Shown here: positions 3,803 through 36,402 of the stretch, in pieces
Layout of the letters: each line of letters starts with the position of its first letter
Numbering within the stretch: the stretch's first letter is position 1
Origin: Ignavibacteria bacterium
Lineage (GTDB): Bacteria > Bacteroidota > Ignavibacteria > Tepidaquicellales > Tepidaquicellaceae
Assembly: GCA_019187405.1 (NCBI GenBank)
Contig: JABAQZ010000011.1
Span: forward strand, 186,001-250,000
DNA: 64,000 nt
Reading direction: 5' to 3'
Notes under the pieces: model-generated
Told to the model about the DNA's origin: nothing
Databases searched by the model: none
The model's input: the letters and a program-made list of their open reading frames with translations, nothing else
Made by a program: the position numbers and the translations under genes

Positions 3803-3831
3803 TATTTTGTTTTGAATTTATTCAAAAAGTT

Positions 3832-5453: not shown

Positions 5454-5626
5454 ATTCTTTGAAAAATTTTTATAAATATAACTGTATGAATCAGTTTATT
5501 AAAGTTAATAAAGTATAATATACCGACGGAAATTTCATTTTATCTTTAATCAACATCAGACTTAGACAGACCGGCTTGTAATTCAACTGGACTTTATTAA
5601 ACAACCTCAAATGCATATTTTGGAAC

Positions 5627-14554: not shown

Positions 14555-14566
14555 ACTCTCCTTTGA

Positions 14567-16198
14567 TTATTTTTTAGATTCAAAAATAAATGCAGAAAAC
14601 CTTCCGTCGGGAGAATTGATGCGTGTATAAAGCTTGTATTTTGAAGTATCCTGTAAGGCATCAAGCGGTACGTCGTTTTTCATGTCCGCAGGTCTGTAAC
14701 TGTAATGCGTATCCCACACAAAAACTGAACCCGGCTTTGCGCTTTTAATATTCTCCATTATGAGCCGTTTGTAATTGCCGGGATTCTTTCTGTAAACATC
14801 ATCTGTATAAAAAGGAATGAATGAATGATTGTAATAAATTTCTTTATTGCTTATGTCAATTGATTTTAAAAATTCCGATACCTGCTTAAGTGCAAGATTT
14901 TCCGGTGTAAGAATTTTTGGAGTATAATTAAAGTAAAGATATATTACTGACATTAACAGAAAAACCGCAGAAAGTTTATTCAGATATTCTGCCACAGGCT
15001 CCTTTTTAAAAAGCATTACAAATAAAACGCAGACACCAATAATCATCAGCTTTGAATATTCGCTTACTTCGAGCAGAATGAAGCCATCGGATTTTTTGGA
15101 TAAAAAAATGAGAGCAATAAAAAACAGAATTCCGGAAATGATATATGCAGTTTTTCGGAATTCCTGTCTTGATAAATTATTCAAGCCAACTGTTGCAAAA
15201 GCTGCGGCTACCGGTGAAATGTGAAGCAGATATCTCCAGTTGCCCGGATTCGGTCCATCTGAAAACATTGTAAGCAGCTGAACAATAAATACAGAGGTAA
15301 AGACAATGTAAAACATGTCATACTTCGACAGATATTCTTTAAGAGACTTTGTATCCGATAAAAATCCTAAATAGCCCAGCAGAAAAAGCAGAAGCGAAAC
15401 CGGACCGATTATGAAAATGTAAACCAAAAAGTAATGTGAAACTCCCTGAGTTTTATAATTGTATGAAGACAACGAAGACATTTCAGTCAGCACAAATAAA
15501 ATGTCTCCTGTTTTTATAAATCCAAGCAGATTATATAATAAAGGAAACAGTGCAAGGCATACAATTGCAATGAAATTTTTCTTTCTGAAATAAATAAATG
15601 CAAATATTAAAATCAGTAAAGCAATTTCCTGTCTTACAGTAAAAATATATCCACAGATTAAAGCCGAGAGTATGTATTTTTCTTTTTTGTAAAAAATCAG
15701 AACCAGAAGAATCAACAGCGATGTAAAAATTTCCGCATAAGATCTGAAAGAAAGATCAAAGAAAAGCGGCTGAAGCGCCAGAAGTAATGCTCCGAAACTC
15801 GCATATCCTATGTTAAAGCATTTAAGCATTAAGTAAGTCGTATATACTGTAACAGCAGCAATGAGAGCATTAACAAACAGAACAGCTTCATAGCCGAACA
15901 GCGAGGGAATAACCATAATAAGCTTATATCCCGGTTTGGGTGAATTACCAAGGATGACAAACGGATCGCTCCAAAAATTAATCATGTTGATATATTGTCC
16001 GATTTCATCGTCCTGATAAAACCCAACTGAATATTTGCTGCTCAGATAATAAATGAAGGTGAAAACGGGTATGACAATCCAAAAATATTTTTCCGCAAAC
16101 TTCGAATTATCCAGTGGAACAAATGAATTTGCGTTTTTTTTGATTGATTTACCGGGTGTCTGAGACTTTGGATTTTTTTTTACTTCTTTAATTGACAT
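14567..16198 (-). CDS. Multi-pass membrane glycosyltransferase, GT-C type
   Basis: 543 residues with about 11-12 hydrophobic helices and a soluble C-terminal part. The first external loop holds an acidic cluster (YQDDEIGQYINM, near residue 60), as expected for the catalytic Asp/Glu of GT-C enzymes such as ArnT/PMT that use polyprenyl-phosphate sugars on the periplasmic side. It is the first gene of the leftward three-gene set with the epimerase and DPM-like GT2. Family-level call; the acceptor is unknown. Confidence 0.75.
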   Translation of the reverse strand: MSIKEVKKNPKSQTPGKSIKKNANSFVPLDNSKFAEKYFWIVIPVFTFIYYLSSKYSVGFYQDDEIGQYINMINFWSDPFVILGNSPKPGYKLIMVIPSLFGYEAVLFVNALIAAVTVYTTYLMLKCFNIGYASFGALLLALQPLFFDLSFRSYAEIFTSLLILLVLIFYKKEKYILSALICGYIFTVRQEIALLILIFAFIYFRKKNFIAIVCLALFPLLYNLLGFIKTGDILFVLTEMSSLSSYNYKTQGVSHYFLVYIFIIGPVSLLLFLLGYLGFLSDTKSLKEYLSKYDMFYIVFTSVFIVQLLTMFSDGPNPGNWRYLLHISPVAAAFATVGLNNLSRQEFRKTAYIISGILFFIALIFLSKKSDGFILLEVSEYSKLMIIGVCVLFVMLFKKEPVAEYLNKLSAVFLLMSVIYLYFNYTPKILTPENLALKQVSEFLKSIDISNKEIYYNHSFIPFYTDDVYRKNPGNYKRLIMENIKSAKPGSVFVWDTHYSYRPADMKNDVPLDALQDTSKYKLYTRINSPDGRFSAFIFESKK

Positions 16199-19423: not shown

Positions 19424-19541
19424 AAATTGGTCTGCAATATCATTGATGAGCTTTTGTAAATTATACTCTTCTATTTTGCAAAATATACTCAATTATAAAA
19501 ATAATTTAAGTGGAAATAGTAATCTCACAATAACGCCAACG

Positions 19542-21681
19542 TGTCTTCCTGAACGCCAGCGTGTCTTCCTGAACGCCAGCGTGTCATCCTGAACGCCAGC
19601 GTGTCATCCTGAACACCTATCTGTCTTCCTGAACTTGTTTCAGGATCTGATGTTGTTTACACATAAAATTCTGTACAGACCACTACAGATGCTGAACCAA
19701 GTTCAGCATGACAGGGGAGTTTGTCTTCCTGAACGCCAGCGTGTCTTCCTGAACGCCAGCGTGTCTTCCTGAACGCCAGCGTGTCATCCTGAACACCTAT
19801 CTGTCATCCTGAACTTGTTTCAGGATCTGATGATGTTTACACATAAAATTCTGTACAGACAATCACAGATGCTGAACCAAGTTCAGTATGACAGGGGTGT
19901 ATGTCTTCCTGAACGCCAGCGTGTCCTCCTGAACGCCAACGTGTCTTCCTGAACGCCAACGTGTCTTCCTGAACGCCAGCGTGTCATCCTGAACTTGTTT
20001 CAGGATCTGATGTTGTTTACACATAAAATTCTGTACAGACAACCACAGATGCTGAACCAAGTTCAGCATGACAGGGGTGTTTGTCTTCCTGAACGCCAGC
20101 GTGTCATCCTGAACGCCAGCGTGTCATCCTGAACGCCAACGTGTCTTCCTGAACGCCTATCTGTCATCCTGAACTTGTTTCAGGATCTGATGATGTTTAC
20201 ACATAAAATTCTGTACAGACCACTACAGATGCTGAACCAAGTTCAGCAAGACAGGGGTGTATGTCTTCCTGAACGCCAGCGTGTCTTCCTGAACACCTAT
20301 CTGTCATCCTGAACTTGTTTCAGGATCTGATGTTGTTTACACATAAAATTCTGTACAGACCACTACAGATGCTGAACCAAGTTCAGCAAGACAGGGGTGT
20401 ATGTCTTCCTGAACGCCAACGTGTCTTCCTGAACGCCAGCGTGTCTTCCTGAACGCCAGCGTGTCATCCTGAACGCCAGCGTGTCATCCTGAACACCTAT
20501 CTGTCTTCCTGAACTTGTTTCAGGATCAGATGTTGTTTACACATAAAATTCTGTACAGACAATCACAGATGCTGAACCAAGTTCAGCATGACAGGGGTGT
20601 TTGTCTTCCTGAACGCCAACGTGTCTTCCTGAACGCCAGCGTGTCATCCTGAACTTGTTTCAGGATCTGATGTTGTTTACACATAAAATTCTGTACAGAC
20701 CACTACAGATGCTGAACCAAGTTCAGCAAGACAGGGGTGTATGTCTTCCTGAACGCCAACGTGTCTTCCTGAACGCCAGCGTGTCATCCTGAACTTGTTT
20801 CAGGATCTGATGTTGTTTACACATAAAATTCTGTACAGACAACCACAGATGCTGAACCAAGTTCAGCATGACAGGGGTGTTTGTCTTCCTGAACGCCAAC
20901 GTGTCTTCCTGAACTTGTTTCAGGATCTGATGTTGTTTACACATAAAATTCTGTACAGACAACCACAGATGCTGAACCAAGTTCAGCATGACAGGGGTGT
21001 TTGTCTTCCTGAACGCCAACGTGTCTTCCTGAACGCCAACGTGTCTTCCTGAACGCCAGCGTGTCTTCCTGAACGCCAGCGTGTCATCCTGAACTTGTTT
21101 CAGGATCTGATGTTGTTTACACATAAAATTCTGTACAGACAATCACATATGCTGAACCAAGTTCAGCATGACAGAGGAGTTTGTCTTCCTGAACACCAAC
21201 GTGTCTTCCTGAACGCCAACGTGTCATCCTGAACACCTATCTGTCATCCTGAACTTGTTTCAGGATCTGATGTTGTTTACACATAAAATTCTGTACAGAC
21301 AACCACAGATGCTGAACCAAGTTCAGCATGACAGGGGTGTATGTCTTCCTGAACGCCAGCGTGTCTTCCTGAACGCCAACGTGTCATCCTGAACACCTAT
21401 CTGTCATCCTGAACTTGTTTCAGGATCTGATGATGTTTACACATAAAATTCTGTACAGACAATCACAGATGCTGAACCAAGTTCAGTATGACAGGGGTGT
21501 ATGTCTTCCTGAACGCCAGCGTGTCATCCTGAACACCAGCGTGTCTTCCTGAACGCCAACGTGTCTTCCTGAACGCCAGCGTGTTTTCCTGAACTTGTTT
21601 CAGGATCAGATGTTGTTTACACATAAAATTCTGTACAGACAATCACAGATGCTGAACCAAGTTCAGCATGACAGGGGAGGA
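19542..21681. repeat. REP-like repeat cluster on a 20-bp lattice (13 long units)
   Basis: About 2.1 kb of nested repeats. A 100-bp unit carries two hairpins (CCTGAACTTGTTTCAGG and GCTGAACCAAGTTCAGC) joined by a ~40-bp AT-rich linker and bounded by TGTCA/TGACA. Thirteen copies are present, the first beginning at 19622. Between them are variable numbers of a 20-bp unit, TGTCTTCCTGAACGCCAGCG, related to the head of the long unit. Every unit start tested falls at 19542 plus a multiple of 20. Frames translating as LVQHL/LKQVQDD are repeat translations, not genes. Similar elements recur at 35983-36402. Confidence 0.95.
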
Positions 21682-21908
21682 TGAAGATTAATATTTCTTC
21701 CCCATATGAGTAGATTTATTTTGAAGCAAATACTAATTTTTATTTGTAAAAAATAATAATTGAAACTTGACTTATTTTAGTTTATAAGATCAAGAGAATG
21801 AAAAGACTTATAACTTATTTTCTCTCGAATGAGGGATAGAAATAGTAATGAAATTAGTTTAAATTGATTTTATAGATGAAAATCTTTAAAATTAATGAAG
21901 AAGAATAT

Positions 21909-21916
21909 TATATTTG
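21909..21916 (+). promoter_or_regulatory. Candidate -7 box for cas9 transcription
   Basis: TATATTTG fits the Bacteroidetes -7 consensus TAnnTTTG, about 150 bp before the cas9 ATG. There is no convincing TTTG at the -33 position. If used, the mRNA leader would run antisense through the whole tracrRNA. The stretch 21690-21945 otherwise shows only AT-rich sequence without a gene. Confidence 0.3.
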
Positions 21917-21947
21917 GAGGGAATTAGATTTTAAGATTAATAATATT

Positions 21948-22020
21948 AAAAAAGGCGAGTTTCCCCGCCTCAAATGTTTTCACAACGGAATAATCCTTAT
22001 TGTGATTTGCTTTCAAATTT
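21948..22020 (-). ncRNA. tracrRNA of the type II-C system
   Basis: On the minus strand, an 18-nt anti-repeat (TTTGAAAGCAAATCACAA, plus-strand 22000-22017) matches the end of the CRISPR repeat exactly. It therefore pairs with the crRNA repeat read from the minus strand. It is followed by a small GGA...TCC hairpin, a linker with GTTGTGAAAAC, and a stem GGCGGG-GAAA-CTCGCC (21954-21969) ending in a run of six T (21948-21953), a typical Rho-independent tracrRNA end. The 5' end is not defined. It is divergent from and just upstream of cas9. It fixes the crRNA strand as minus. Confidence 0.85.
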
Positions 22021-22063
22021 AATAATAACATATAAATTTTTATTAAAATAAAAAATACATAAA

Positions 22064-25000
22064 ATGAAAAGAATACTGGGATTGGATATTGGTACAAATT
22101 CTATTGGGTGGGCTTTAACTGAAATTGATATTGATAAAGAATCAAGAAAATTTAAGGATGGAAAAATAATATATTCAGGTTGCAGAATCATTCCTACATC
22201 ACAAGATGTTTTAGGAAAATTTAATGCAGGAATGAAAGTTTCTCAAACTGCTGAAAGAACACGATATAGAAGCATCAGAAGGTTAAGAGAAAGACAACTT
22301 TTACGAAGGGAAAGGTTATTTAGGGTACTAAACATTATGAATTTTCTTCCTCAGCATTTTAGAAGTCAAATTGATTTTAAAAATAACAAAGGTAAATTTT
22401 TAAATTTTTCAGAACCTAAAATTGCATATAATTTAAAAAACGGGAAATCAGAATTTTATTTTAAAACTGCATTTGAGGAAATGCTGAAAGACTTCAAAAA
22501 GCATCATCCAGCTTTATTAAAAAAATCTGACGGTTCAACTGCATTAGTTCCATTCGACTGGACTATATATTATTTAAGGAAAAAAGCTTTATCCAAAAAA
22601 ATAGAAAAAGAAGAATTATCCTGGTTAATTCTTAATTTTAACCAGAAACGAGGATATTATCAATTGAGAAGCGAAGATGAGGAAGATGAGGTTAATAATA
22701 AAACCGAAAATTTTTTTGCACTTAAAGTTATAAAAGTTGAAGAAGAGAAAGACAGAAAAAGTAATGCAGAATCCTGGTATTCCGTGTATCTGGAGAATGG
22801 ATTTATATACAAGAGAAAAAGTAAAACTTCTTTGAAGGACTGGGTTGGGAAAATAAAGGAATTTATTGTCACAACGGAAATTGATAGTGAAGGAAATGAA
22901 TTATTGAATAAAGATGGCGAGCCAAAGAGAACTTTTAAGAATGTAGATTCGGAAAAGGACTGGATTGCGATAAAGAAAAGCACTGAAGAAAAAATTGAAA
23001 AAAGCAGAAAAGCAGTAGGAGAATACATCTATGATTCACTTCTTCATAACCCTGATCAAAAAATCAGAGGTAAATTGATCCGAACAATTGAGAGAAAATA
23101 TTACAGGAGCGAACTTGAAAAAATTCTCAATAAGCAAAAGGAATTTCACCCTGAATTAAAGGATAAAAAATTATTGTCAAAATGCGTTAAAGAACTTTAT
23201 GACAAAAATGAAACACACAGAGAATTGCTTGAACAAAAAGATTTTACAAATTTTTTTGTTAACGATATAATTTTTTATCAGAGACCTTTAAAAAGCAAAA
23301 AATATCTTATTAGCAATTGTAAATTCGAAACAAGATTTTATAAAGTTAATGGAGATTTAGTAGAAAAACCTGTTAAATGTATCCCGAAATCTCATCCTCT
23401 ATTTCAGGAATTCAGACTTTGGAAGTTTGTGAAGGATTTAAGGATATTTGAGAAAGAAAAAATAGTTAATGGGGAACTGTTGTTTGATGCTGATGTAACA
23501 AAGGAATATCTGAAAAATGAAGACGATTTTGTTAAGTTGTTTGAATGGTTTAATGACAAAAAAGAAATTGACCAGAATTCTTTCCTAAAATACCCTGAAT
23601 GGGGACTTAAGAAAAAATCTGTAAACTTTAGGTGGAATTATGTGCAGGACAAATGTTATCCCTGTAATGAGACAAGAGCACAAATGTTGAATTATTTAAG
23701 AAAGATAATAGAAAATCCATCTGAATTTTTAACAAAAGATTTAGAGATTGAGCTTTGGCATATATTGTATTCTATTAGTGATAAAGAAGAACTTAAAAAA
23801 GCTCTTTTAAAATTTTCTCAAAAACAAAAGTTAGATGAAAAATTTATTGATAAGTTTCTCAAGTTTCCTGCTTTCAAAAGAGATTATGGTTCTTACTCTT
23901 ATAAAGCAATCAATAAGATGATAAAATTAATGAGAATGGGAAAATATTGGACAAAAGAGTTCATAGATAATAATACATTAGATAGAATTGAGAAGCTAAT
24001 TACCGGAGAATACGATGAATCGATCAAAAACAGGGTAAGAGATAAAGCTTTAGAATTAAGATGTATTGAAGAATTCAAAGGTTTACCTGAATGGCTGGCT
24101 TCATATATTATTTATGACAGACATTCAGAAAGAAAAGATTCAGAAATTTGGAAAACTCCGGAAGAAATTCAGTTATTAAAACAACACAGTTTAAGAAATC
24201 CTGTTGTTGAACAAGTTGTAAATGAAACGTTAATGATAGTAAGAGACATCTGGAATCATTTCGGGAAAGGAGCAAAAAATTTCTTTGATGAAATTCACAT
24301 TGAGCTTGGCAGAGAAATGAAAAATAATAGCGAACAACGAAAACGGCTTTCGCAAAAAATTATTGAGAATGAAAATACAAATCTTAGAATAAAAGCATTG
24401 TTAATTGAAATTAAGAATTCTGGTAATTCAGAAAATGTAAAGCCATTTTCGCCAATGCAGCAAGAAATACTAAAACTTTATGAAGAAGGAGTACTTGCAT
24501 CGTATTCAGATAAATTACCAGAAGAATTTGAGAAAATCTCCAAACTCGCTTCACCTACTTCACAAGAACTAAAAAAATATCGTCTTTGGCTGGAACAAAA
24601 ATACAGATCTCCTTATACCGGAGAAATAATACCGTTAAGCAAGCTTTTTACGCCTGCCTATGAAATAGAACATATAATTCCGCAATCAAGATATTTTGAT
24701 GATTCTTTAAGTAATAAAGTTATTTGTGAATCCGAAATAAATGAAGAAAAAGGAAATTTGACTGCTTATGAGTTTATTAATTCAAATCCTGGAAAGATAA
24801 TAGAACTTTCAGCTGGCAAATCCGCAAAATTATTTACTTTAGATCAATATAAGGATTTTGTTTCCAAATTTTATAAAGGTATAAGTATAAAGCAGAAAAA
24901 GTTATTAATGGAGGATATTCCGGAAAGTTTTATCGAAAGACAGCTGAATGACACACGATATATAAGTAAATCAGTAAAAAATTTATTAAGCAATATTGTT

Positions 25001-26647
25001 AGAGAAGAAAATGAGATGGAAGAAACTTCAAAAAATTTAATTTCCTGCAGTGGTATGATAACATCAACATTGAGACAGGACTGGGGTTTAAATGATGTTT
25101 GGAATGAAATAATTTCTCCAAGATTCCAGAGATTAAATGAATTGACTAATAGTAAAAATTTTGGTGATTGGGAAAAGAAAAATGGTAAGAATATTTTTCA
25201 AATCAACATACCTATTGAGCATCAAAAAGGGTTCAGTAAAAAGAGGATTGATCACAGACATCATAGCCTTGATGCAATAATACTGGCTTGTACTACAAGA
25301 GATCATATTAATTATCTTAATAATCAGAGTGCATTAAGAATTTCTAAATCTGAAAAAAATGATGATAAATTAAAAAGAAGATATGATTTGAGAAATAAGC
25401 TATGTCATAAAAAATATTCAGGAAGCAATAAAAATAATTATAAGTGGGAATTTAACAAACCATGGGATGACTTTTCTAAAGATGTTTATAATTCAATTAG
25501 CAATATTGTAGTCAGTTTTAAACAAAATTTAAGAGTGATAAATAAAACCACAAATAATTACCTAAGATTGAGAAAGAATGAAAATGGTAAAATATCGCGG
25601 GAATTTGTAAAACAAGTAAAAGGTGACAATTGGGCAATAAGGAAACCCTTACATAAAGATACTGTTTTTGGATCCGTAATGCTTAAGTTTAAGACTAAAG
25701 TGAAAATTAATGCTGCCCTTAATACACCGGATCTTATTTGTGATACAATCCTAAAGAATTATATAATGGATGTTCTGGAAAAACACAATAACGATAAAAA
25801 GGCAGTACTTAAATTTTTAAAAAAGGAGAAGTATAGATATAACAAAAAAGATATATCGGTAATCGAAGTGTATAGTATTGATGACAGTAATGTTGCTGCT
25901 AGAAAAAAAATTAATACTGATTTTAATTCGAAGAAAATTGAATCCATAACAGATGCAGGCATTCAAAAAATTATGCTGAATCATCTTAAAAGTTTTAATG
26001 AAAAGAAAAAGGGGAAGATAATAGAGCATCCCGAATTAGCATTTTCAGAAGACGGTATTGAAGAAATGAATAAAAAAATTCTTACATTAAACGATAATGT
26101 TCCTCATAAGCCAATATACAATGTGAGAGTTTATGAGCCGAAAGGAAATAAATTTGCAGTCGGAGTTAGAGGAAATAAACCAGATAAGTATGTGGAAGCG
26201 GCTAAAGGTACCAATCTGTTTTTTGCAATTTATGTAAATGAAGAAGGAAAAAGATCTTACGAGACAATACCTTTGAATATTGTAATTGAAAGACAGAAGA
26301 AAGGGCGTTCTCCAGTGCCCGATAAAGATGTAAACGGAAATAACCTATTGTTTTACTTGTCTCCGGGTGATTTGGTTTATGTCCCTGAAATAGAAGAAAT
26401 TGAAAAATTAAATTCAGTTTCGAGTAATGATTTAAGTAATAATTTAGATAAAATTTATAAAATGGTAAGCTCTACAGGATCACAGTGTTTTTTCATAAAC
26501 CATTACGTCGCAAATCCTATTGTTAATAAGATTGAATTTTTATCTTTAAATAAGATGGAAAAAACTATAAGTGGAATTATGATTAAAGAAAAATGTTTCA
26601 AAATTAAAATAAATAGAGTCGGAATGATTAAATTATATAATGATTAA
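22064..26647 (+). CDS. cas9: CRISPR-associated endonuclease Cas9, type II-C
   Basis: 1527-residue RNA-guided nuclease, on the long side for II-C. RuvC-I is at RILGLDIGTNSIGW (Asp8). The arginine-rich bridge helix follows (about 66-88, many RxxR). RuvC-II is HIELGRE with Glu747. The HNH domain is EIEHIIPQS with His870, Asn884 and Asn893 at the 14- and 23-residue spacing of known Cas9s; the residue before His870 is Glu where many Cas9s have Asp. RuvC-III is DHRHHSLDA with His1067 and Asp1070. All catalytic positions are therefore kept. No csn2 or cas4 follows, which types it II-C. The end overlaps cas1 by 8 bp. Confidence 0.97.
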   Translation: MKRILGLDIGTNSIGWALTEIDIDKESRKFKDGKIIYSGCRIIPTSQDVLGKFNAGMKVSQTAERTRYRSIRRLRERQLLRRERLFRVLNIMNFLPQHFRSQIDFKNNKGKFLNFSEPKIAYNLKNGKSEFYFKTAFEEMLKDFKKHHPALLKKSDGSTALVPFDWTIYYLRKKALSKKIEKEELSWLILNFNQKRGYYQLRSEDEEDEVNNKTENFFALKVIKVEEEKDRKSNAESWYSVYLENGFIYKRKSKTSLKDWVGKIKEFIVTTEIDSEGNELLNKDGEPKRTFKNVDSEKDWIAIKKSTEEKIEKSRKAVGEYIYDSLLHNPDQKIRGKLIRTIERKYYRSELEKILNKQKEFHPELKDKKLLSKCVKELYDKNETHRELLEQKDFTNFFVNDIIFYQRPLKSKKYLISNCKFETRFYKVNGDLVEKPVKCIPKSHPLFQEFRLWKFVKDLRIFEKEKIVNGELLFDADVTKEYLKNEDDFVKLFEWFNDKKEIDQNSFLKYPEWGLKKKSVNFRWNYVQDKCYPCNETRAQMLNYLRKIIENPSEFLTKDLEIELWHILYSISDKEELKKALLKFSQKQKLDEKFIDKFLKFPAFKRDYGSYSYKAINKMIKLMRMGKYWTKEFIDNNTLDRIEKLITGEYDESIKNRVRDKALELRCIEEFKGLPEWLASYIIYDRHSERKDSEIWKTPEEIQLLKQHSLRNPVVEQVVNETLMIVRDIWNHFGKGAKNFFDEIHIELGREMKNNSEQRKRLSQKIIENENTNLRIKALLIEIKNSGNSENVKPFSPMQQEILKLYEEGVLASYSDKLPEEFEKISKLASPTSQELKKYRLWLEQKYRSPYTGEIIPLSKLFTPAYEIEHIIPQSRYFDDSLSNKVICESEINEEKGNLTAYEFINSNPGKIIELSAGKSAKLFTLDQYKDFVSKFYKGISIKQKKLLMEDIPESFIERQLNDTRYISKSVKNLLSNIVREENEMEETSKNLISCSGMITSTLRQDWGLNDVWNEIISPRFQRLNELTNSKNFGDWEKKNGKNIFQINIPIEHQKGFSKKRIDHRHHSLDAIILACTTRDHINYLNNQSALRISKSEKNDDKLKRRYDLRNKLCHKKYSGSNKNNYKWEFNKPWDDFSKDVYNSISNIVVSFKQNLRVINKTTNNYLRLRKNENGKISREFVKQVKGDNWAIRKPLHKDTVFGSVMLKFKTKVKINAALNTPDLICDTILKNYIMDVLEKHNNDKKAVLKFLKKEKYRYNKKDISVIEVYSIDDSNVAARKKINTDFNSKKIESITDAGIQKIMLNHLKSFNEKKKGKIIEHPELAFSEDGIEEMNKKILTLNDNVPHKPIYNVRVYEPKGNKFAVGVRGNKPDKYVEAAKGTNLFFAIYVNEEGKRSYETIPLNIVIERQKKGRSPVPDKDVNGNNLLFYLSPGDLVYVPEIEEIEKLNSVSSNDLSNNLDKIYKMVSSTGSQCFFINHYVANPIVNKIEFLSLNKMEKTISGIMIKEKCFKIKINRVGMIKLYND

Positions 26648-27629
26648 AAAGACATTATATTTTGGAAGTTCGGTTTATTTAAGTTTTAAAGATGGACAAT
26701 TGTTAATAGAGCAAAGATCTTTGAACCCAGATGCTATTAAGATAAATGATGATTATATTGAAATAGATACAGGTTTTCAAAAGACGGGAGGAATGGATAA
26801 ATATTTAAGAAGGAAATATAAATATGAATCTATTCCAATAGAGGATATTGGTATTGTTGTTTTGGATCATTACGGTGTCAGCACTTCTCAATATTTAATT
26901 TCCAAATTATTGGAAAATAATGTTGCAGTAATATTTTGTAATGAAAATCATCATCCAAATGGACTTCTATTAAATCTTGACGGTAATCACATTCAATCAG
27001 AGAAATTTAAAGCTCAGATAAAAGCTACTGTCCCTTTTAAAAAAAATCTTTGGATGCAGACAGTTGCCTCAAAAATCAATAATCAGGCATTATTATTGAA
27101 AGAAAGAGGAAGAGAAACTGATAATATGATAAGTTGGGTAAAGAAAGTTAATTCGGGTGACACAAAAAATTATGAAGCAAGAGCTTCTGTTTATTACTGG
27201 AAAAATTTGTTTTCTGAAGAAATTCAGTTTCACAGAGATAGATTTGGTGAACCTCCAAATAATCTATTAAATTATGGTTATGCAATTCTTAGAGCAACAG
27301 TAGCAAGGGGACTTGTTGCTTCAGGGTTATTGCCAACTCTGGGAATTCATCATAGTAATAAATATAATGCATATTGTCTTGCCGATGATATAATGGAACC
27401 TTACAGACCTTTTATTGATAAAATTGTATGTGAAATAGTAGAAAAAGAAAGAGATTATCTTTCACTTTCTAAAACTATTAAAGAAAGACTGCTTCAGATA
27501 CCGACTGAAGAAGTAATAATTGACGGGAAAAAAAGCCCTCTTATGGTAGGCATACAGAGAACAACTTCTTCACTTGCAAGATGCTTTGAAGGAAATACAA
27601 GGAAAATTTTGTATCCTCAAATGAAATAA
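26640..27629 (+). CDS. cas1: CRISPR integrase Cas1 (type II)
   Basis: 329 residues. Catalytic metal ligands are visible as Glu179 in NYEARASVYYW, the His237-His238 pair in GIHHSNKYN and the Asp249-Asp250 pair in ADDIMEPYRP, all in normal order. Cas1 with Cas2 integrates prespacers at a repeat. The start overlaps cas9, so the genes are co-translated. Intact Cas1 and Cas2 mean that spacer uptake is probably still possible, which bears on the giant insertion in the array. Confidence 0.97.
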   Translation: MIKKTLYFGSSVYLSFKDGQLLIEQRSLNPDAIKINDDYIEIDTGFQKTGGMDKYLRRKYKYESIPIEDIGIVVLDHYGVSTSQYLISKLLENNVAVIFCNENHHPNGLLLNLDGNHIQSEKFKAQIKATVPFKKNLWMQTVASKINNQALLLKERGRETDNMISWVKKVNSGDTKNYEARASVYYWKNLFSEEIQFHRDRFGEPPNNLLNYGYAILRATVARGLVASGLLPTLGIHHSNKYNAYCLADDIMEPYRPFIDKIVCEIVEKERDYLSLSKTIKERLLQIPTEEVIIDGKKSPLMVGIQRTTSSLARCFEGNTRKILYPQMK

Positions 27630-27986
<357 letters not shown>

Positions 27987-28031
27987 TTTACATGTCGATT
28001 AAAAAAATTTTAAATTATTGAAATAAAAAAA

Positions 28032-28055
28032 CGGGAATCTGAAATTAGATTCCCG
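28032..28055. terminator. Bidirectional terminator between cas2 and the array
   Basis: Perfect 9-bp stem CGGGAATCT / AGATTCCCG with a 6-base loop. On the minus strand it is followed by a strong T run (plus-strand A run at 28025-28031). On the plus strand it is followed by AATTTCTTTT. It can end cas mRNA and also stop leftward pre-crRNA from running antisense into cas2. Confidence 0.8.
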
Positions 28056-28128
28056 AATTTCTTTTGCATTTTTTTCTATGCAATAAATGCTCTAACTACT
28101 TTGAATAATAGACAGTTAAGTAAATTCT

Positions 28129-31100
28129 GTTGTTACAAATATTGCAAAAGAACTTTTTGAAAGCAAATCACAACTCGGGATTGGGAATACTGTTTCCGTT
28201 TTTGTTGTTACAAATATTGCAAAAGAACTTTTTGAAAGCAAATCACAACATAATACGGCAGATTAACTGCTGTAATTCGTTGTTACAAATATTGCAAAAG
28301 AACTTTTTGAAAGCAAATCACAACAGTTTTCTAATCTTTGTATTGTTTTTTCGTGTTGTTACAAATATTGCAAAAGAACTTTTTGAAAGCAAATCACAAC
28401 ACGATGATTATCCGGATGTATATTTCAATTGTTGTTACAAATATTGCAAAAGAACTTTTTGAAAGCAAATCACAACCGGGAGAAGTCAAGTATGTAACTG
28501 AAGATGTTGTTACAAATATTGCAAAAGAACTTTTTGAAAGCAAATCACAACCAGATTGTATGATTTAATTTTTATGTATCCGTTGTTACAAATATTGCAA
28601 AAGAACTTTTTGAAAGCAAATCACAACTGTAGTTTCCTAACTATTGTGTATGCATTTGTTGTTACAAATATTGCAAAAGAACTTTTTGAAAGCAAATCAC
28701 AACAAAATGTTGCGGAAATATTTTCAAAGTATTGTTGTTACAAATATTGCAAAAGAACTTTTTGAAAGCAAATCACAACTAAATCAGAATTATACAGCAC
28801 TTTACCCATGTTGTTACAAATATTGCAAAAGAACTTTTTGAAAGCAAATCACAACGAAGCTATGAGCAACATTCTGTTTGCGTAGTTGTTACAAATATTG
28901 CAAAAGAACTTTTTGAAAGCAAATCACAACTATTTCATAAGTCATCTTAATCGGACAAATGTTGTTACAAATATTGCAAAAGAACTTTTTGAAAGCAAAT
29001 CACAACCAAACTCGTTCAAACCGGTTGCGCCATACGTTGTTACAAATATTGCAAAAGAACTTTTTGAAAGCAAATCACAACACAGAGCAGAAATAGAGGG
29101 AAAAAATTCTAGTTGTTACAAATATTGCAAAAGAACTTTTTGAAAGCAAATCACAACGCATTCTTTTCTTTTACATTGCGGAAATATGTTGTTACAAATA
29201 TTGCAAAAGAACTTTTTGAAAGCAAATCACAACCCTAATACTCTAATTCTATTCGACGTATGGTTGTTACAAATATTGCAAAAGAACTTTTTGAAAGCAA
29301 ATCACAACACCGATAACACCATACCCACAATTCATCAGTTGTTACAAATATTGCAAAAGAACTTTTTGAAAGCAAATCACAACTACATGCTAATACCATC
29401 AACGAAAGTGATAGTTGTTACAAATATTGCAAAAGAACTTTTTGAAAGCAAATCACAACAAGCTTGATTATTGCTCTTCGCTGTCCCAAGTTGTTACAAA
29501 TATTGCAAAAGAACTTTTTGAAAGCAAATCACAACGTGGTTGTAACTCTATTTGATTTTAAATCTGTTGTTACAAATATTGCAAAAGAACTTTTTGAAAG
29601 CAAATCACAACATGTTTAAATCTTTAAATCTTGTGTATTATGTTGTTACAAATATTGCAAAAGAACTTTTTGAAAGCAAATCACAACATTATAGAAGTGC
29701 GATAATTGGACATGTTGGTTGTTACAAATATTGCAAAAGAACTTTTTGAAAGCAAATCACAACGGAATTATTCTTTTATCGCTGTTAGCAATAGTTGTTA
29801 CAAATATTGCAAAAGAACTTTTTGAAAGCAAATCACAACAATATCCGGTATCAATGTGAGCGATAAACTGTTGTTACAAATATTGCAAAAGAACTTTTTG
29901 AAAGCAAATCACAACAGTATATACTTCTTAAGTATTTTACTATAAGTTGTTACAAATATTGCAAAAGAACTTTTTGAAAGCAAATCACAACATTAATTTC
30001 GCCATTATTTCCTATATTTTGGTTGTTACAAATATTGCAAAAGAACTTTTTGAAAGCAAATCACAACTGTTGTTAAGATAAATTGTTTTCATTTTTTGTT
30101 GTTACAAATATTGCAAAAGAACTTTTTGAAAGCAAATCACAACTAGACCAGAGGTTCGTAATCAACATAACTTGTTGTTACAAATATTGCAAAAGAACTT
30201 TTTGAAAGCAAATCACAACTATTCGTGCTTCCTGTTGTTAATGTAAATTGTTGTTACAAATATTGCAAAAGAACTTTTTGAAAGCAAATCACAACAAAAG
30301 CTGGACAAATCCAGCTTTTTTTTTGGTTGTTACAAATATTGCAAAAGAACTTTTTGAAAGCAAATCACAACAGAAGTAGTCGCTTGTGGTGCGGGTAAAT
30401 GTTGTTACAAATATTGCAAAAGAACTTTTTGAAAGCAAATCACAACAAGATTCCGGTCTACATTAAAGACGTTACCGTTGTTACAAATATTGCAAAAGAA
30501 CTTTTTGAAAGCAAATCACAACAGATCGTAATTGGCATATCCTTCGGCTTCCGTTGTTACAAATATTGCAAAAGAACTTTTTGAAAGCAAATCACAACTA
30601 TTTCTGAAAATAAACTAATCTTTTGCCTGTTGTTACAAATATTGCAAAAGAACTTTTTGAAAGCAAATCACAACTAAATCCTGTATATTAATTCAGATAA
30701 AGAAGTTGTTACAAATATTGCAAAAGAACTTTTTGAAAGCAAATCACAACAAGTTGTCTATGAAGATTATCTTGTAAAAGTTGTTACAAATATTGCAAAA
30801 GAACTTTTTGAAAGCAAATCACAACAGGAGAAATAATATGAAATACAAATTTGAGGTTGTTACAAATATTGCAAAAGAACTTTTTGAAAGCAAATCACAA
30901 CTCTTCAATCTCCTGATTCATATCACCGCCAGTTGTTACAAATATTGCAAAAGAACTTTTTGAAAGCAAATCACAACTATAAGACAACAAACTCTTTCTT
31001 TTATTAAGTTGTTACAAATATTGCAAAAGAACTTTTTGAAAGCAAATCACAACACCTTCTTTTATCTTTGGTGATTCTTGATTGTTGTTACAAATATTGC

Positions 31101-31584
31101 AAAAGAACTTTTTGAAAGCAAATCACAACCAATACCTTTTTTTTTTTTTTTTTTTTTAAGTTGTTACAAATATTGCAAAAGAACTTTTTGAAAGCAAATC
31201 ACAACAAAGTATTACCGAAATGTTTCGGAAATATTGTTGTTACAAATATTGCAAAAGAACTTTTTGAAAGCAAATCACAACAAACTTCAGAAGTGATTGC
31301 CTGGACTTCATGTTGTTACAAATATTGCAAAAGAACTTTTTGAAAGCAAATCACAACACGAAAGTGCAGTAGGAACCGGTTTTAGAGTTGTTACAAATAT
31401 TGCAAAAGAACTTTTTGAAAGCAAATCACAACAGCACTCCTGATTTCTCAAATTTAGCATCAGTTGTTACAAATATTGCAAAAGAACTTTTTGAAAGCAA
31501 ATCACAACAAGCTCAATTTCATTTTTAATCAAATTAATGTTGTTACAAATATTGCAAAAGAACTTTTTGAAAGCAAATCACAAC
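28129..31584 (-). CRISPR. Main CRISPR array, 46 repeats and 45 spacers
   Basis: 46-bp repeat beginning GTTGTTACAA and ending AAAGCAAATCACAAC on the plus strand; every copy I read is identical. Spacers are 29-30 bp. The tracrRNA anti-repeat shows the functional crRNA comes from the minus strand, where the repeat begins GTTGTGATTTGCTTTC, as in other Bacteroidota II-C arrays. Terminal repeats show no decay, so leader and trailer ends are not told apart by repeat sequence. The minus-strand repeat contains a promoter-like TTTG-N20-AATATTTG. The ORFs reading LQILQKNFLKANHN in this stretch are translations of the repeat. Confidence 0.98.
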
Positions 31585-31688
31585 TGTATGGAACGCATGG
31601 CTTCTATCTCAATGGCTTTGAGACCTTTGATTCTAATATCTTGGATGACGGAATTAAGTTTTGATTGGATTTCTTGGATTGAACTCAT
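31585..31688 (-). CDS. Truncated phage gene start (3' cut by the CRISPR repeat)
   Basis: An ATG at 31688 overlaps the stop of the head-protein gene (ATGA) and opens a frame reading MSSIQEIQSKLNSVIQDIRI and on for 34 codons until it meets repeat 46. The tight overlap is typical of a phage operon, so this is most likely the start of the next gene, cut by whatever placed the fragment here. Function unknown. Confidence 0.6.
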
Positions 31689-33313
31689 AATAATACAACA
31701 CCTTTCCTGAATTCATCAATCTTATCATAACCGATGAATTTAAATTCATAAGCTTCGTTGTTATTGATCTTGACAATCTGGAATCCATCAAAACGGTACC
31801 TAATAAAATACACTTCTGAATTTACTACATTGTTGTAATTGTATGTTTCCCCCCACACCTCATTTGCGGTGGACATTATGTTCTTTAAATGATTCTCGTT
31901 TAACGTATCTACAACAATTTTTATATTTCTTATTTCAAGTGAAAAATTTATTTTAGTATTAAAATTAAGTAGGTCGCTGCCAACGGGGAAGTGCTTCCTT
32001 GGTAATTCAGCGAAATTGCCAATGGCGGTAGATTTTAAGTGTAGCACTTCACCATTCTTAATTTTTCTTATCAGAGCATCCATATTCCGAATCCCCAATG
32101 ACTTAAAGTTAACAAGCTTTCCCTCGATAAATCCAATCGCGAAAATTTCAACCTGTTTATCACCATACATAAAGGCTCGGACAAACACTATCCCACCTCG
32201 TTCATCCTTTATAATAAACACAGGGTCGTTTAGTGTAGTTTTAAAAGTACCGTAATATTTTTTTCTATTGTCTCTTTTCTCAAGGATTTTTTGTAACGCA
32301 TTAGTAGCCAAGACGCCTTCTCCTATAGGAGTATCAACTCTATTGTTTTGGAAATCTTCATCCCAGTTTTCCTGTGTTGGTTCTCTCTCAATAACCGGGG
32401 TGGCATATTTTTCTAATTCACTCTGGAGCAGATCGGTTACCTGCTTTTTTGATATTGAACGTGCATATTCAAATGATTCCTTAAATTTTGTATTATAATC
32501 TAAATCTTTAAATTTGGCGTCTTTCCACTTTCCCCAAATGCTTCTCGATTTACCCGAATTCCTTTGAAAATCCTTCCCAATCCTGCCTTCACCAACGATA
32601 CTATTGAGCTGTTCATCCGAAGAAGTTTTTGGCTGCACCGCAGAATTATTTCTCTCATCTTCGTTGAGAGGCTTAATATAACATCTGCAATTCCATCCGT
32701 TAGGAGGCCAGATTTTATCCCATACGGGGTCGTCATTTCTCCAGATGTTGTTATTCAACCTTGCATGTTCTTCGCGGACTCTGTTATCCTCAAGAGTTTT
32801 ATATTGGTATGCTGGGTAAAGATTTTTAATCGAGTCATCCTGAAGCCGAATGTATTGCGCAGCATGATAAGATGACTGCATTGCAGTTCGCAAGTTTGTA
32901 TTGAGATAACGAGGCGGAGGCATATCGGGAATCGGGATGTAATCAGCCATAATACTGTAAGCTTCGGCAACCCAGACTTTTTTAATATCTTTCTCGCCTT
33001 GAGCAAGCGGATGTTTGCCTTCCTGAAGGTCAAGTGCAAGCTGCCTGAGCTTCTCTTCCAGTTCAAAGCTCATTACACCGGCAACCGTGAATGCTTCGAT
33101 TTTGAAATTCGTCAGTGCAATTTTATCTGTATCGGTGTAACTGATTTTAAAAAGCTCCGGCTCATCCGCCAGCCGGAGAATTTCTTTTTTGTTAAGCTTT
33201 ACAATGGAGGCAATTCCTTTGCGGTAAGCTTTGTCAATGCCATCAGAGAGAGTCTTGCCGATGATATTGTAAATTTCAAAATTAATATTTCTTTTCCCTC
33301 CTTCCGGTAACAA
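31685..33313 (-). CDS. Phage Mu F-like (SPP1 gp7-type) minor head protein, probable C-terminal nuclease-like domain
   Basis: 542 residues. The motif region HARLNNNIWRNDDPVWDKIW followed by PPNGWNCRC (about 185-215) is characteristic of phage Mu gpF/SPP1 gp7 head-morphogenesis proteins, which sit at the portal and help DNA ejection or capsid assembly. The region from about 330 to 425 (YYGTFKTTLNDPVFIIKDER...) looks like the PBECR-type nuclease-like domains often attached to such proteins; that part is inference. The start is uncertain: the frame opens at a TTG within the end of the terminase gene, but a strong GGAGG just after it suggests a start some 20-25 bases further in. Confidence 0.8.
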   Translation of the reverse strand: MLPEGGKRNINFEIYNIIGKTLSDGIDKAYRKGIASIVKLNKKEILRLADEPELFKISYTDTDKIALTNFKIEAFTVAGVMSFELEEKLRQLALDLQEGKHPLAQGEKDIKKVWVAEAYSIMADYIPIPDMPPPRYLNTNLRTAMQSSYHAAQYIRLQDDSIKNLYPAYQYKTLEDNRVREEHARLNNNIWRNDDPVWDKIWPPNGWNCRCYIKPLNEDERNNSAVQPKTSSDEQLNSIVGEGRIGKDFQRNSGKSRSIWGKWKDAKFKDLDYNTKFKESFEYARSISKKQVTDLLQSELEKYATPVIEREPTQENWDEDFQNNRVDTPIGEGVLATNALQKILEKRDNRKKYYGTFKTTLNDPVFIIKDERGGIVFVRAFMYGDKQVEIFAIGFIEGKLVNFKSLGIRNMDALIRKIKNGEVLHLKSTAIGNFAELPRKHFPVGSDLLNFNTKINFSLEIRNIKIVVDTLNENHLKNIMSTANEVWGETYNYNNVVNSEVYFIRYRFDGFQIVKINNNEAYEFKFIGYDKIDEFRKGVVLL

Positions 33314-34685
33314 TCATCGGTGTTCTTTCGTCTTCATCTACACAAAGCACCCGAGTATTCCATAAAGCGTAATCACCGGCGTCAGAAAGGTGGGATAGGT
33401 CTTTCCTTGACTTGTCAATATGGAATCCCTCCATATTGGAAGAAGTTCTTTTCCATCCGACAAGCTCGCGGTCCCTGATGCTGAATTTACAATTCTCACA
33501 AATAAAAAATTTTTTTTGTTCAAAAAGTTTATTGGTATAATTAACTCTGTCTCTTACCGGAGGGTTTTCATTTGGAACTGCAAGAGTAAATTTTATGCGA
33601 CTTCTTAAAAACCAATCTTTTATAATCATATAGTCCGACTTGCCGAAAGATGACGATTTCTTTGAACGGCCGGATGCATCACCGGTAATGATTATACTTA
33701 AGTCTTGGATGTCGTATTTATTCTCGAGATTAGTTATGATTGACTCGCATAGCTCATCAGTGTTTGACGAGTGGATAAGATATTCATCAACTTGAAAGTA
33801 TCTATTTTTATGCAAGATGAATTCAGTTGCAGTCATCGGGTCAACATTAAAATCAAAGCTTATTATTAACTGGATTGTTCCGGTCAAAGGAATATCATCG
33901 ACGAGCAGAACATTTTTTGTCCTTTCAAATCCGTAGTACACTTTGCCCTGTGATAGCGACATGTACTTTCCCAACATATATACTTCTTTTGTTTTGGCGT
34001 CAAATGTATTCTCGAGAGATTTCAAGTATCCCTTTGAGAGATATTTATTTTCATAAGTCGGAACGGTGATGGTGAACAAGTCTTTGTCATTATGGTCCTG
34101 CGCAAAGAATTCAAAACCCCACTCCATAGTTTCCGGCTCGGGTGTGCCTGCCCAGAAAATTTCCTGGCGTTTTGCATTGCCCGAACGAGCTCTGGCTATG
34201 AGATTTTCATAAGTTTCTTTTCGCTGCGAAAAAGGTTCGTCCATGCCGATTGCGGCGACGGTAACGCCCTTGAAAAATTTCTGTCCTATCAGGATTATTT
34301 TACCAATATCGCTTTCGTTCGAGCCGAAGGTCATCTCAAAGCTTCCGCTGTCTTTAGTCCAGTTAAATTCTATGTCGTTATCCTTGCAGAGTGATTTCAG
34401 AACAGGCAGCCCTGATGCGATTGCGGAATCTTCCGTGGGATATGAGATTACAACCGGAACGGGTCTGTTAACATACGCCAATAGAATTGCTTCGGCGCAG
34501 AAAGCGTAAGTCTTCCCGGAGCCGTAGCCACCCTTAATTCCTTTTTGCCTCTGCTCTGCTTTGTGAAAAGATAATTGTTTTTCTTGCGGCTTATAGTTCG
34601 GGAGTATGATCCGAAGCTCCTCAAGGCGGCTGATGGTTTTATTCGTCTTGAATCTGTTCTTGAGATTCAGACGTTTTTCTTCCAT
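33282..34685 (-). CDS. Phage terminase large subunit
   Basis: 467 residues. The ATPase domain has Walker A GGYGSGKT (52-59) and Walker B AAIGMDE (144-150). The RNase H-like nuclease domain has SFDFNVDP (Asp278), ITGDASG (Asp336) and HLSDAGDYALW (432-442). All motor and nuclease landmarks are present, so the protein looks intact and could cut and pump phage DNA if made. The ATG lies only 6 bp inside the right CRISPR repeat. A native promoter or ribosome site was therefore cut away, but the repeat's own promoter-like sequence points toward this gene. Confidence 0.9.
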   Translation of the reverse strand: MEEKRLNLKNRFKTNKTISRLEELRIILPNYKPQEKQLSFHKAEQRQKGIKGGYGSGKTYAFCAEAILLAYVNRPVPVVISYPTEDSAIASGLPVLKSLCKDNDIEFNWTKDSGSFEMTFGSNESDIGKIILIGQKFFKGVTVAAIGMDEPFSQRKETYENLIARARSGNAKRQEIFWAGTPEPETMEWGFEFFAQDHNDKDLFTITVPTYENKYLSKGYLKSLENTFDAKTKEVYMLGKYMSLSQGKVYYGFERTKNVLLVDDIPLTGTIQLIISFDFNVDPMTATEFILHKNRYFQVDEYLIHSSNTDELCESIITNLENKYDIQDLSIIITGDASGRSKKSSSFGKSDYMIIKDWFLRSRIKFTLAVPNENPPVRDRVNYTNKLFEQKKFFICENCKFSIRDRELVGWKRTSSNMEGFHIDKSRKDLSHLSDAGDYALWNTRVLCVDEDERTPMIVTGRREKKY

Positions 34686-34691
34686 TAATGC

Positions 34692-34813
34692 GTTGTTACA
34701 AATATTGCAAAAGAACTTTTTGAAAGCAAATCACAACAACTCCGCTTTCGTGTCAGCGTTGGAAGGAGTTGTTACAAATATTGCAAAAGAACTTTTTGAA
34801 AGCAAATCACAAC
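34692..34813 (-). CRISPR. Right-hand remainder of the CRISPR array, 2 repeats and 1 spacer
   Basis: Two more repeats (34692-34737 and 34768-34813), identical to those of the main array, flank a normal 30-bp spacer (34738-34767). With the main array this gives 48 repeats. If crRNAs are read leftward and the leader is on this side, this spacer would be the newest and the phage block the second newest. Confidence 0.97.
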
Positions 34814-35253: not shown

Positions 35254-35883
35254 ATGATGATTGATTTGAATTTAAAGATGATTGACACAGGAGGAATAAA
35301 AAGCAGCATTAAAAAAATGAAAATTAGAATTAAAGAAATGAAGATCAGCATCAGAGAAATGAAGACTAACATTGGAGAAATGAAGACCAGCATTAGAGAA
35401 ATGAAGACCAGCATTAGAGAAATGAAGATCAGCATTGGAGAAATGAAGATCAGCATTGGAGAAATGAAGATCAGCATCAGAGAAATGAAGATTAGCATTA
35501 GAGTAATGTATCGCAGCAATTACCTGTGAACTTTTATTCAATGTCAGGTTACATCTGACATTGTCAAATTGAAGTGTGACACGAGAGAAATGAAATGTAA
35601 CTCAAAAGAAATGAAGTGTGACACTAAAGAAATGAAATTCGACACAAGGGAAATGGTTTATTTAATCAAAGAATTGATATATGACATCTGAGAAATGAAA
35701 TGTGACACAAAAAAAATGGATTTTAACTTCATAAAAATGAAGTGCTCAAATGTTAGTGTACTTTCAGACATTGTCAGATCAGATTTCGACATTATAGAAA
35801 TGAAGAGTGACACAAAAGAAATGATGAGTGACTCGAGAGAAATGATGAGTGAAAGAATAGAAATTTACAATTTTTACAATTTT
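35254..35883 (+). pseudogene. Decayed 21-bp tandem repeat reading frame (seven-residue repeat)
   Basis: A 21-bp period runs through about 600 bp in one reading frame. The first half encodes near-perfect EMKISIR/EMKTSIR units (about ten). The second half encodes a diverged EMKCDTK-like unit. Two in-frame stops (TGA at 35527 and 35689) break the frame, which otherwise stays open from 35254 to beyond 35880. The seven-residue period and the charged/hydrophobic alternation would suit a coiled coil. The minus strand is also open over the first half, so coding is not certain; a non-coding minisatellite is the alternative. Confidence 0.5.
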
Positions 35884-35982
35884 TGGGAAGAAGTAAACAC
35901 ACATTATTGTTTAAAGACTCTGCATAAAACTCATTCACAAACTACACAGTTATTGCAGCAGGCAAACTCACTGAACCCAATC

Positions 35983-36402
35983 TGTCCTCCTGAACGCCAG
36001 TATGTCATCCTGAACTTGTTTCAGAATCTGATCTTGATTACTCATAAAATTCTGTACAGACCACTACAGATGCTGAACCAAGTTCAGCATGACAGGGGAG
36101 TTTGTCTTCCTGAACGCCAGCGTGTCTTCCTGAACGCCAGCGTGTTTTCCTGAACTTGTTTCAGGATCAGATGTTGTTTACACATAAAATTCTGTACAGA
36201 CAATCACAGATGCTGAACCAAGTTCAGCATGACAGGGGTGTTTGTCTTCCTGAACGCCAACGTGTCTTCCTGAACACCTATCTGTCATCCTGAACTTGTT
36301 TCAGGATCAGATGTTGTTTACACATAAAATTCTGTACAGACCACTACAGATGCTGAACCAAGTTCAGCATGACAGGGGAGTTTGTCTTCCTGAACGCCAA
36401 TG
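35983..36402. repeat. Second REP-like cluster (3 long units)
   Basis: Three 100-bp two-hairpin units (starting 36003, 36143, 36283) with intervening 20-bp TGTCTTCCTGAACGCCAGCG units, in the same orientation and lattice as the 19.5-21.7 kb cluster. The first unit is the most diverged (CAGAATCTGATCTTGATTAC in place of the usual sequence). With the left cluster it brackets the CRISPR-Cas island. Confidence 0.93.

What the first reader, a model, noticed from the sequence alone, without database searches (positions are those of the whole stretch)
31585..34691. A 3.1-kb phage packaging block sits in a CRISPR spacer slot as a giant 'spacer'
Seen directly: repeat 46 ends at 31584 and the next identical repeat starts at 34692. 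Everything between is phage DNA with genes cut at the left end and within 6 bp at the right end. No integrase, transposase, inverted ends or duplicated target exists other than the repeats. Intact cas1 and cas2 are upstream. Hypotheses: (a) Cas1-Cas2 integrated an untrimmed, very long prespacer; (b) recombination between the array and a phage carrying a repeat or mini-array; (c) assembly bridging, where two ordinary 30-bp spacers against the same phage (the first and last 30 bp of the block) let the assembler walk through the phage genome. A real mega-spacer would be a striking, possibly undescribed, adaptation outcome.
Basis: partly seen in the sequence, partly recalled or inferred. Interest (0 to 1): 0.88.

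Follow-up and report, generated by a model that had tools for sequence, protein, structure and literature searches.

The report
Kilobase phage segment fills CRISPR slot
In a bacterial CRISPR memory bank, where every other entry is 30 letters long, one entry holds 3,107 letters of virus DNA that look like two virus pieces joined together; a related bacterium has a similar oversized entry, which suggests that infecting virus DNA can be copied or stitched into the bank in an undescribed way.

Summary
In detail: 48 identical 46-bp repeats, 46 spacers of 29-30 bp, and one 3,107-bp slot (31585-34691). The block is DNA of a Mu-like phage, and its homology to phage genes runs to the last codon at both edges (gpG cut after codon 34, TerL starting at about codon 11). 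So no remnant of an ordinary spacer is left: the slot is filled exactly. Inside, TerL is joined to MuF, against the order MuF-gpG-TerS-TerL of all seven relatives that show both genes, at a short shared sequence that removes the MuF start codon. The block therefore looks like two phage pieces joined. Of 50 further arrays (about 1,490 slots), one, in the same family, has an analogous slot: 1,578 bp of phage gene made of two pieces from variants 94% alike, joined at about 2 bp. The assembly has a k=127 de Bruijn signature, so two shared 30-mers could not simply bridge array and phage; together with the second case this makes an artefact unlikely, but I had no reads. Best mechanism (inferred): two adjacent spacers against one phage anchored repair copying from infecting phage DNA, and the copies were end-joined. 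Rivals: long Cas1-Cas2 half-site integrations, one untrimmed prespacer, misassembly.

The parts
22000..22017 (-). tracrRNA anti-repeat: + strand TTGTGATTTGCTTTCAAA equals bases 2-19 of the reverse-complement repeat; shows that crRNAs are read from the - strand of the array
   Evidence: 18-bp exact match; strand of the tracrRNA inferred
22064..26647 (+). cas9, 1527 aa, type II-C; closest solved relative CbCas9 (8iyq), aligned over residues 2-1209 and 1277-1523
26640..27629 (+). cas1
27654..27986 (+). cas2
28000..28128 (+). putative leader (A/T-rich, next to cas2)
   Evidence: direction from the anti-repeat, the II-C rule in PMC8092290, and degenerate terminal repeats at the far end of several related arrays
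28129..31584 (-). repeats 1-46 and spacers 1-45 (29-30 bp)
31585..34691 (-). the giant slot: 3,107 bp of Mu-like phage DNA
31585..31614 (-). leader-side edge 30-mer (within gpG); candidate former spacer; its PAM would lie outside the block
   Evidence: inference
31585..31688 (-). gpG-like minor head gene, first 34 codons, cut by repeat 46
   Evidence: frame MSSIQEIQSKLNS...EAMRSI; aligned by eye with L051 and L003 gpG
31685..33289 (-). Mu F-like head morphogenesis protein, complete except that the codon at the homologous start is ATT
33278..33287 (-). internal junction TATTAATTTT: TerL stop runs into MuF codon 2; possible AATTT microhomology
   Evidence: L003 TerL ends ATATTAATTTGC; L077 and L051 MuF start ATGAATTTT
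33282..34691 (-). large terminase (TerL), from about codon 11 to its stop, cut by repeat 47
34662..34691 (-). trailer-side edge 30-mer (in TerL); candidate former spacer GCATTAATGGAAGAAAAACGTCTGAATCTC
34657..34661 (-). AAGAA, fits the NNRAA PAM listed for CbCas9 (chance about 9%)
34692..34813 (-). repeat 47, spacer 47 (30 bp), repeat 48: oldest end of the array

Best explanation
The block is genuine host DNA (inferred, about 0.8). It is phage DNA that fills a spacer slot exactly (shown), and it is most likely a composite of two pieces of one Mu-like phage, gpG(1-34)+MuF and TerL(11-end) (inferred from gene order and the joint). Proposed origin (inferred): the array once held two adjacent ordinary 30-bp spacers against that phage, the present edge 30-mers. 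A break or stalled fork between them was repaired by using the spacer-protospacer identity as the homology. One array end copied phage DNA inward from the gpG protospacer, the other copied inward from the TerL protospacer, and the two copies were joined at a few shared bases. The result is repeat - spacer A - phage DNA - junction - phage DNA - spacer B - repeat, with the middle repeat lost. The outer edges could still encode crRNAs: in II-C each repeat is thought to carry its own promoter (from the literature), and Cas9 uses about 20 nt next to a repeat.
For: Both edges are phage-homologous to the last codon and end exactly at intact repeats, with no spacer remnant. TerL lies before MuF, whereas all seven relatives with both genes have MuF-gpG-TerS-TerL. 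The junction shows AATTT microhomology and loss of the MuF ATG. Same-family genome G010, with a 56%-identical cas1, has a 1,578-bp slot between repeats with 0 and 1 mismatch. It is made of two pieces of one phage gene, from variants 93.6% identical over 547 bp, joined at about 2 bp with an immediate stop codon. A viral contig carries this region in a single copy (47% aa identity over the whole query) beside a terminase gene. The trailer-side 30-mer of the block is followed by AAGAA, which fits the NNRAA PAM of the closest characterised Cas9. No Ku gene was found, in keeping with microhomology joining rather than classical NHEJ. The k=127 assembly signature argues against 30-bp bridging.
Against: No reads were seen. 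30 bp is short for RecA-dependent recombination. The PAM fit has about a 9% chance of being accidental, and the PAM of this Cas9 is not known; in G010 the corresponding flank is AGATT, which does not fit NNRAA. TerL-MuF could be a natural gene order of an unsampled phage: the junction falls exactly at gene ends, and a TTG start about 10 codons upstream exists. No independent evidence shows that the edge 30-mers were ever separate spacers. Only two cases are known.
Confidence: 0.42

Rival explanations
1. Cas1-Cas2 made two separate half-site integrations of long, untrimmed phage fragments, one at each border of the leader-proximal repeat; the free tails were end-joined and the repeat was duplicated by gap filling.
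For: Explains exact repeat borders, repeat duplication and two-piece content in both genomes. Cas1-Cas2 of type II can integrate the two ends independently as half-site events (PMC6895254), and without Cas9/Csn2 it takes up unprocessed-length substrates in vitro (PMC8034620).
Against: Spacer lengths in about 1,490 other slots are tightly 24-32 bp, so failure of trimming is very rare. It predicts no PAM inside the trailer-side edge, where AAGAA is seen (weak). It needs two simultaneous events.
Confidence: 0.22
2. A single untrimmed 3.1-kb prespacer from a phage whose natural gene order is TerS-TerL-MuF-gpG was integrated by Cas1-Cas2.
For: TerL precedes MuF in Mu itself (own knowledge). The junction lies exactly at the TerL stop and MuF start, as natural gene shuffling would leave it. 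Both ORFs are open.
Against: All seven relatives with both genes have the other order. MuF lacks ATG, GTG or TTG at the homologous start. The Cas1-Cas2 complex measures about 30 bp. It does not explain the G010 composite.
Confidence: 0.12
3. Assembly chimera: two ordinary spacers against the same phage let the assembler walk through the phage.
For: Short-read assembly. The edge 30-mers could be spacers, and one has a fitting PAM. No reads were available. A 1,106-bp exact repeat inside a contig shows that the assembler went beyond plain k-mers.
Against: At k=127 a shared 30-mer cannot join array and phage unless low-k contigs were fed back and the true branches deleted at both ends. No separate phage contig or second array contig is in the bin. 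There are no Ns in the window. An analogous slot with an internal 2-bp joint exists in a second genome.
Confidence: 0.12
4. Recombination between array repeats and a phage or circular molecule that carried a copy of the repeat (single crossover, insert flanked by repeats).
For: Would give repeat-insert-repeat exactly.
Against: No viral contig holds the exact repeat, and no other copy exists in the genome. It does not explain the two-variant composite in G010.
Confidence: 0.05

Closest known systems
Ordinary type II-C spacer acquisition (Cas1-Cas2 of Flavobacterium columnare and Riemerella type)
   Same: Phage-derived DNA between two intact repeats, in a cas9-cas1-cas2 locus with the leader at the cas2 side
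   Different: 100 times longer than any other spacer here; apparently two phage pieces with an internal junction
Rare long spacers from unprocessed prespacers (in vitro type II-A, PMC8034620)
   Same: Length control fails and the repeat borders are kept
   Different: Unprocessed substrates there were short; kilobase, composite inserts were not found in the papers searched
Insertion sequences or prophages landing inside CRISPR arrays
   Same: Kilobase interruption of an array
   Different: No transposase or integrase, no remnant of a split spacer, no target duplication other than the repeats
Filler DNA at repaired double-strand breaks / break-induced copying with microhomology joining
   Same: Two templated stretches joined at a few shared bases
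   Different: Outer borders coincide exactly with CRISPR repeats, which suggests spacer-protospacer identity as the homology

Membership tests
CRISPR-Cas type II-C locus | cas9 with RuvC and HNH, cas1, cas2, no csn2 or cas4 in the operon | tested here: met
   three genes, overlapping or close, then the array
CRISPR-Cas type II-C locus | tracrRNA anti-repeat matching the repeat | tested here: met
   18 bp at 22000-22017
Ordinary spacer | flanked by two intact repeats | tested here: met
   both repeats identical to the rest
Ordinary spacer | length near 30 bp | tested here: not met
   3,107 bp against 29-30 bp
Ordinary spacer | phage-derived | tested here: met
Ordinary spacer | PAM next to the source sequence | tested here: inconclusive
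   trailer-side edge fits NNRAA; PAM of this Cas9 unknown, source phage not found
Transposon or IS insertion in an array | transposase or terminal inverted repeats | tested here: not met
   only TerL, MuF and a gpG fragment; no transposase match
Transposon or IS insertion in an array | interrupted spacer left at the flanks | tested here: not met
   phage homology to the last codon at both edges
Prophage or phage satellite | integrase or transposase gene, more than one functional module | tested here: not met
   3.1 kb with both end genes truncated
Fragment of a Mu-like transposable phage | nearest homologues lie in phages with a MuA-type transposase and this head module | tested here: met
   MuA-like gene in L003, L004, L051, L055, L074, L076, L077
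Fragment of a Mu-like transposable phage | same gene order as relatives | tested here: not met
   TerL-MuF-gpG here; MuF-gpG-TerS-TerL in all seven with both genes

The most novel reading that the evidence does not exclude
Spacers can serve as homology anchors: when an array breaks during infection, repair copies kilobases of the infecting phage from the matching protospacers and joins the copies, leaving composite giant slots. This would be a second, recombination-based route by which CRISPR arrays take up phage DNA.
Probability: 0.38. Interest if true: 0.86.

Novelty: new variant of a known kind. Interest (0 to 1): 0.72.

Why it matters
Spacer length is thought to be fixed by the Cas1-Cas2 ruler and prespacer trimming. 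Two related genomes with composite, kilobase phage DNA exactly between repeats would show either that the ruler can be bypassed or that spacers recombine with the phages they match. Either would link CRISPR memory to gene capture, leave stretches of phage genes inside defence loci, and offer a natural record of array breakage and repair. It also warns that array-finding programs which cap spacer length miss such events.

Tried and rejected
Protospacers of the 46 normal spacers: none in the own genome beyond the array or in 59 relatives, none convincing in INPHARED phages, none of two tested in IMG/VR; translated spacers matched Mu-like phage proteins no better than reversed controls. So the PAM of this Cas9 could not be derived. 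The source phage was not found: TerL relatives at most 47% in IMG/VR, 50% in GTDB genomes and 53% in order-level genomes, no MuF relative by pattern scan, no exact edge sequences. Phage-borne repeat: none. rRNA copy number as an assembly-type test: one copy, uninformative. Apparent long slots in L222, L299 and L301 are runs of N, and those in L292 and L244 are damaged repeats. Rfam hits in this region were CRISPR repeats below threshold and chance matches.

Full report
What is there. The window carries a type II-C locus: cas9 (22064-26647), cas1 (26640-27629), cas2 (27654-27986) and an array of 48 identical 46-bp repeats from 28129 to 34813. Forty-six of the 47 slots hold 29 or 30 bp. The slot between repeat 46 (ends 31584) and repeat 47 (starts 34692) holds 3,107 bp. 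The block occurs once in the 38-contig genome, and all 48 repeats are at this locus.

Orientation. An 18-bp anti-repeat at 22000-22017 matches bases 2-19 of the reverse-complement repeat. The crRNA strand is therefore the - strand. In II-C systems transcription runs towards the leader (PMC8092290), which places the leader beside cas2. Several related arrays have their degenerate terminal repeat at the end far from cas2, which agrees. So the block is in the second-oldest slot, and a PAM is expected on the left of each spacer as drawn on the + strand.

Content. On the - strand the block reads TerL, then a Mu F-like head protein, then the start of a gpG-like gene. The nearest relatives are Mu-like transposable phages with a MuA-type transposase, among them a prophage on contig C28 of the same genome. 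The right edge cuts TerL: the frame runs to the edge as ALMEEKRL and aligns with QALIEERK of relatives, about 11 codons in. The left edge cuts gpG after 34 codons, with EIEAMRSI against relatives' EEAPRSI. Phage homology thus reaches both repeats, and no part of an ordinary spacer is left. An insertion into a spacer would leave about 30 bp of that spacer; none is seen.

Interior. All seven relatives in which both genes can be seen (L003, L004, L051, L055, L074, L076, L077) have MuF-gpG-TerS-TerL, after portal. The block has TerL-MuF-gpG. At the joint the TerL stop runs directly into MuF codon 2 (TATTAATTTTGAA), and the MuF start codon is ATT. TerL of L003 ends ATATTAATTTGC, and MuF of L051 and L077 starts ATGAATTTT. 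A joint at a shared AATTT would produce exactly this and would remove the ATG. I read it as two phage pieces joined. An unsampled phage with this gene order remains possible.

A second case. cas1 relatives were searched in 391 genomes of the class, and the neighbourhoods of 60 cas1 loci were read; about 50 arrays with about 1,490 slots were recovered. Ordinary slots are 24-32 bp. Apart from runs of N and damaged repeats, only one array has kilobase slots: G010 (same family, cas1 56% identical), locus L245. Its 1,578-bp slot lies between repeats with 0 and 1 mismatch. It contains two copies of a 547-bp stretch, 93.6% identical, joined at about 2 bp with an immediate stop codon. In the viral contig L282 this region is single-copy inside a 3,073-aa ORF next to a terminase gene, at 47% identity over the whole query. 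The slot is therefore best read as a composite of two variants of one phage region. It has no transposase. G010 has another, 3,531-bp gap at the trailer end with a Mutator-family transposase and a T9SS-type gene, which I do not count.

Is it an artefact? Twenty-one of 76 contig ends share exactly 127 bp with another stretch of the assembly. That is the mark of a final k of 127. At that k two shared 30-mers cannot join array and phage; low-k contigs would have to be fed back with the true branches removed at both ends. An exact 1,106-bp repeat is resolved inside one contig, so pair or long-read information was probably used. The window has no Ns. An independent composite slot in a second genome makes an artefact less likely still. 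I had no reads, so this stays an inference (about 0.8 that the block is real).

Mechanism. The facts to explain are exact repeat borders, phage homology to both borders, two pieces in one orientation, and a microhomology joint. Spacer-anchored repair explains all four: two neighbouring spacers against one phage supply 30-bp homologies, each array end copies inward, and the copies are joined. One test was possible. The trailer-side edge 30-mer should be followed by a PAM inside the block. The closest characterised Cas9 is CbCas9, aligned over most of its length including the C-terminal part, and a review lists its PAM as NNRAA (PMC12302564). The flank is AAGAA, a fit, with a chance of about 9%. 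In G010 the flank is AGATT, no fit, but its Cas9 was not recovered. This is weak support. Two half-site integrations by Cas1-Cas2 with long tails are the main rival: half-site events are known (PMC6895254), and Cas1-Cas2 alone takes unprocessed lengths (PMC8034620). No Ku gene was found, so a joint would rest on microhomology or template switching.

Novelty. Full-text searches of the open library found no description of kilobase, composite phage DNA in spacer slots. That library lacks most subscription papers, so absence there is not proof.

Noticed in passing
L245 (G010:C8) 11101-14631: 3,531-bp gap between a repeat with 2 mismatches and the next intact repeat, with a Mutator-family transposase, a T9SS-sorted protein gene, and a gene cut by the repeat at 14632; possibly captured host DNA or an old trailer region.
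   Followed up: partly
G000:C28 about 21000-33000 (L055): Mu-like prophage in the same genome with portal-MuF-gpG-TerS-TerL-MuA; TerL about 40% identical to the block, so not its source.
   Followed up: partly
L051 3927-6536: The MuF gene of this Bacteroidetes Mu-like phage is split by an intein-like insert with a C-terminal VHNC-type junction.
   Followed up: no
window 19500-21600 and 35977-36399: Dispersed tandem repeats of the type TGTCATCCTGAACTTGTTTCAGGATC, 145 matches in the genome; several contigs end in related repeats.
   Followed up: partly
window 35270-35870: Minisatellite of 21-bp units (GAAATGAAGATCAGCATT...) just beyond the trailer end of the array.
   Followed up: no
window 30296-30325 (spacer 29) and 31130-31159 (spacer 40): Spacer 29 is a terminator-like hairpin with a T run; spacer 40 is mostly a run of T.
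   Followed up: no
window 28704-28733 (spacer 8) and 31206-31235 (spacer 41): Two spacers share AAATGTTNCGGAAATATT (17 of 18), as if taken from related sites.
   Followed up: no
L232 (G019:C15) 1728-6788: The repeat changes sequence within one array (from about repeat 53), and one spacer occurs twice, ten units apart, a sign of segmental duplication.
   Followed up: no
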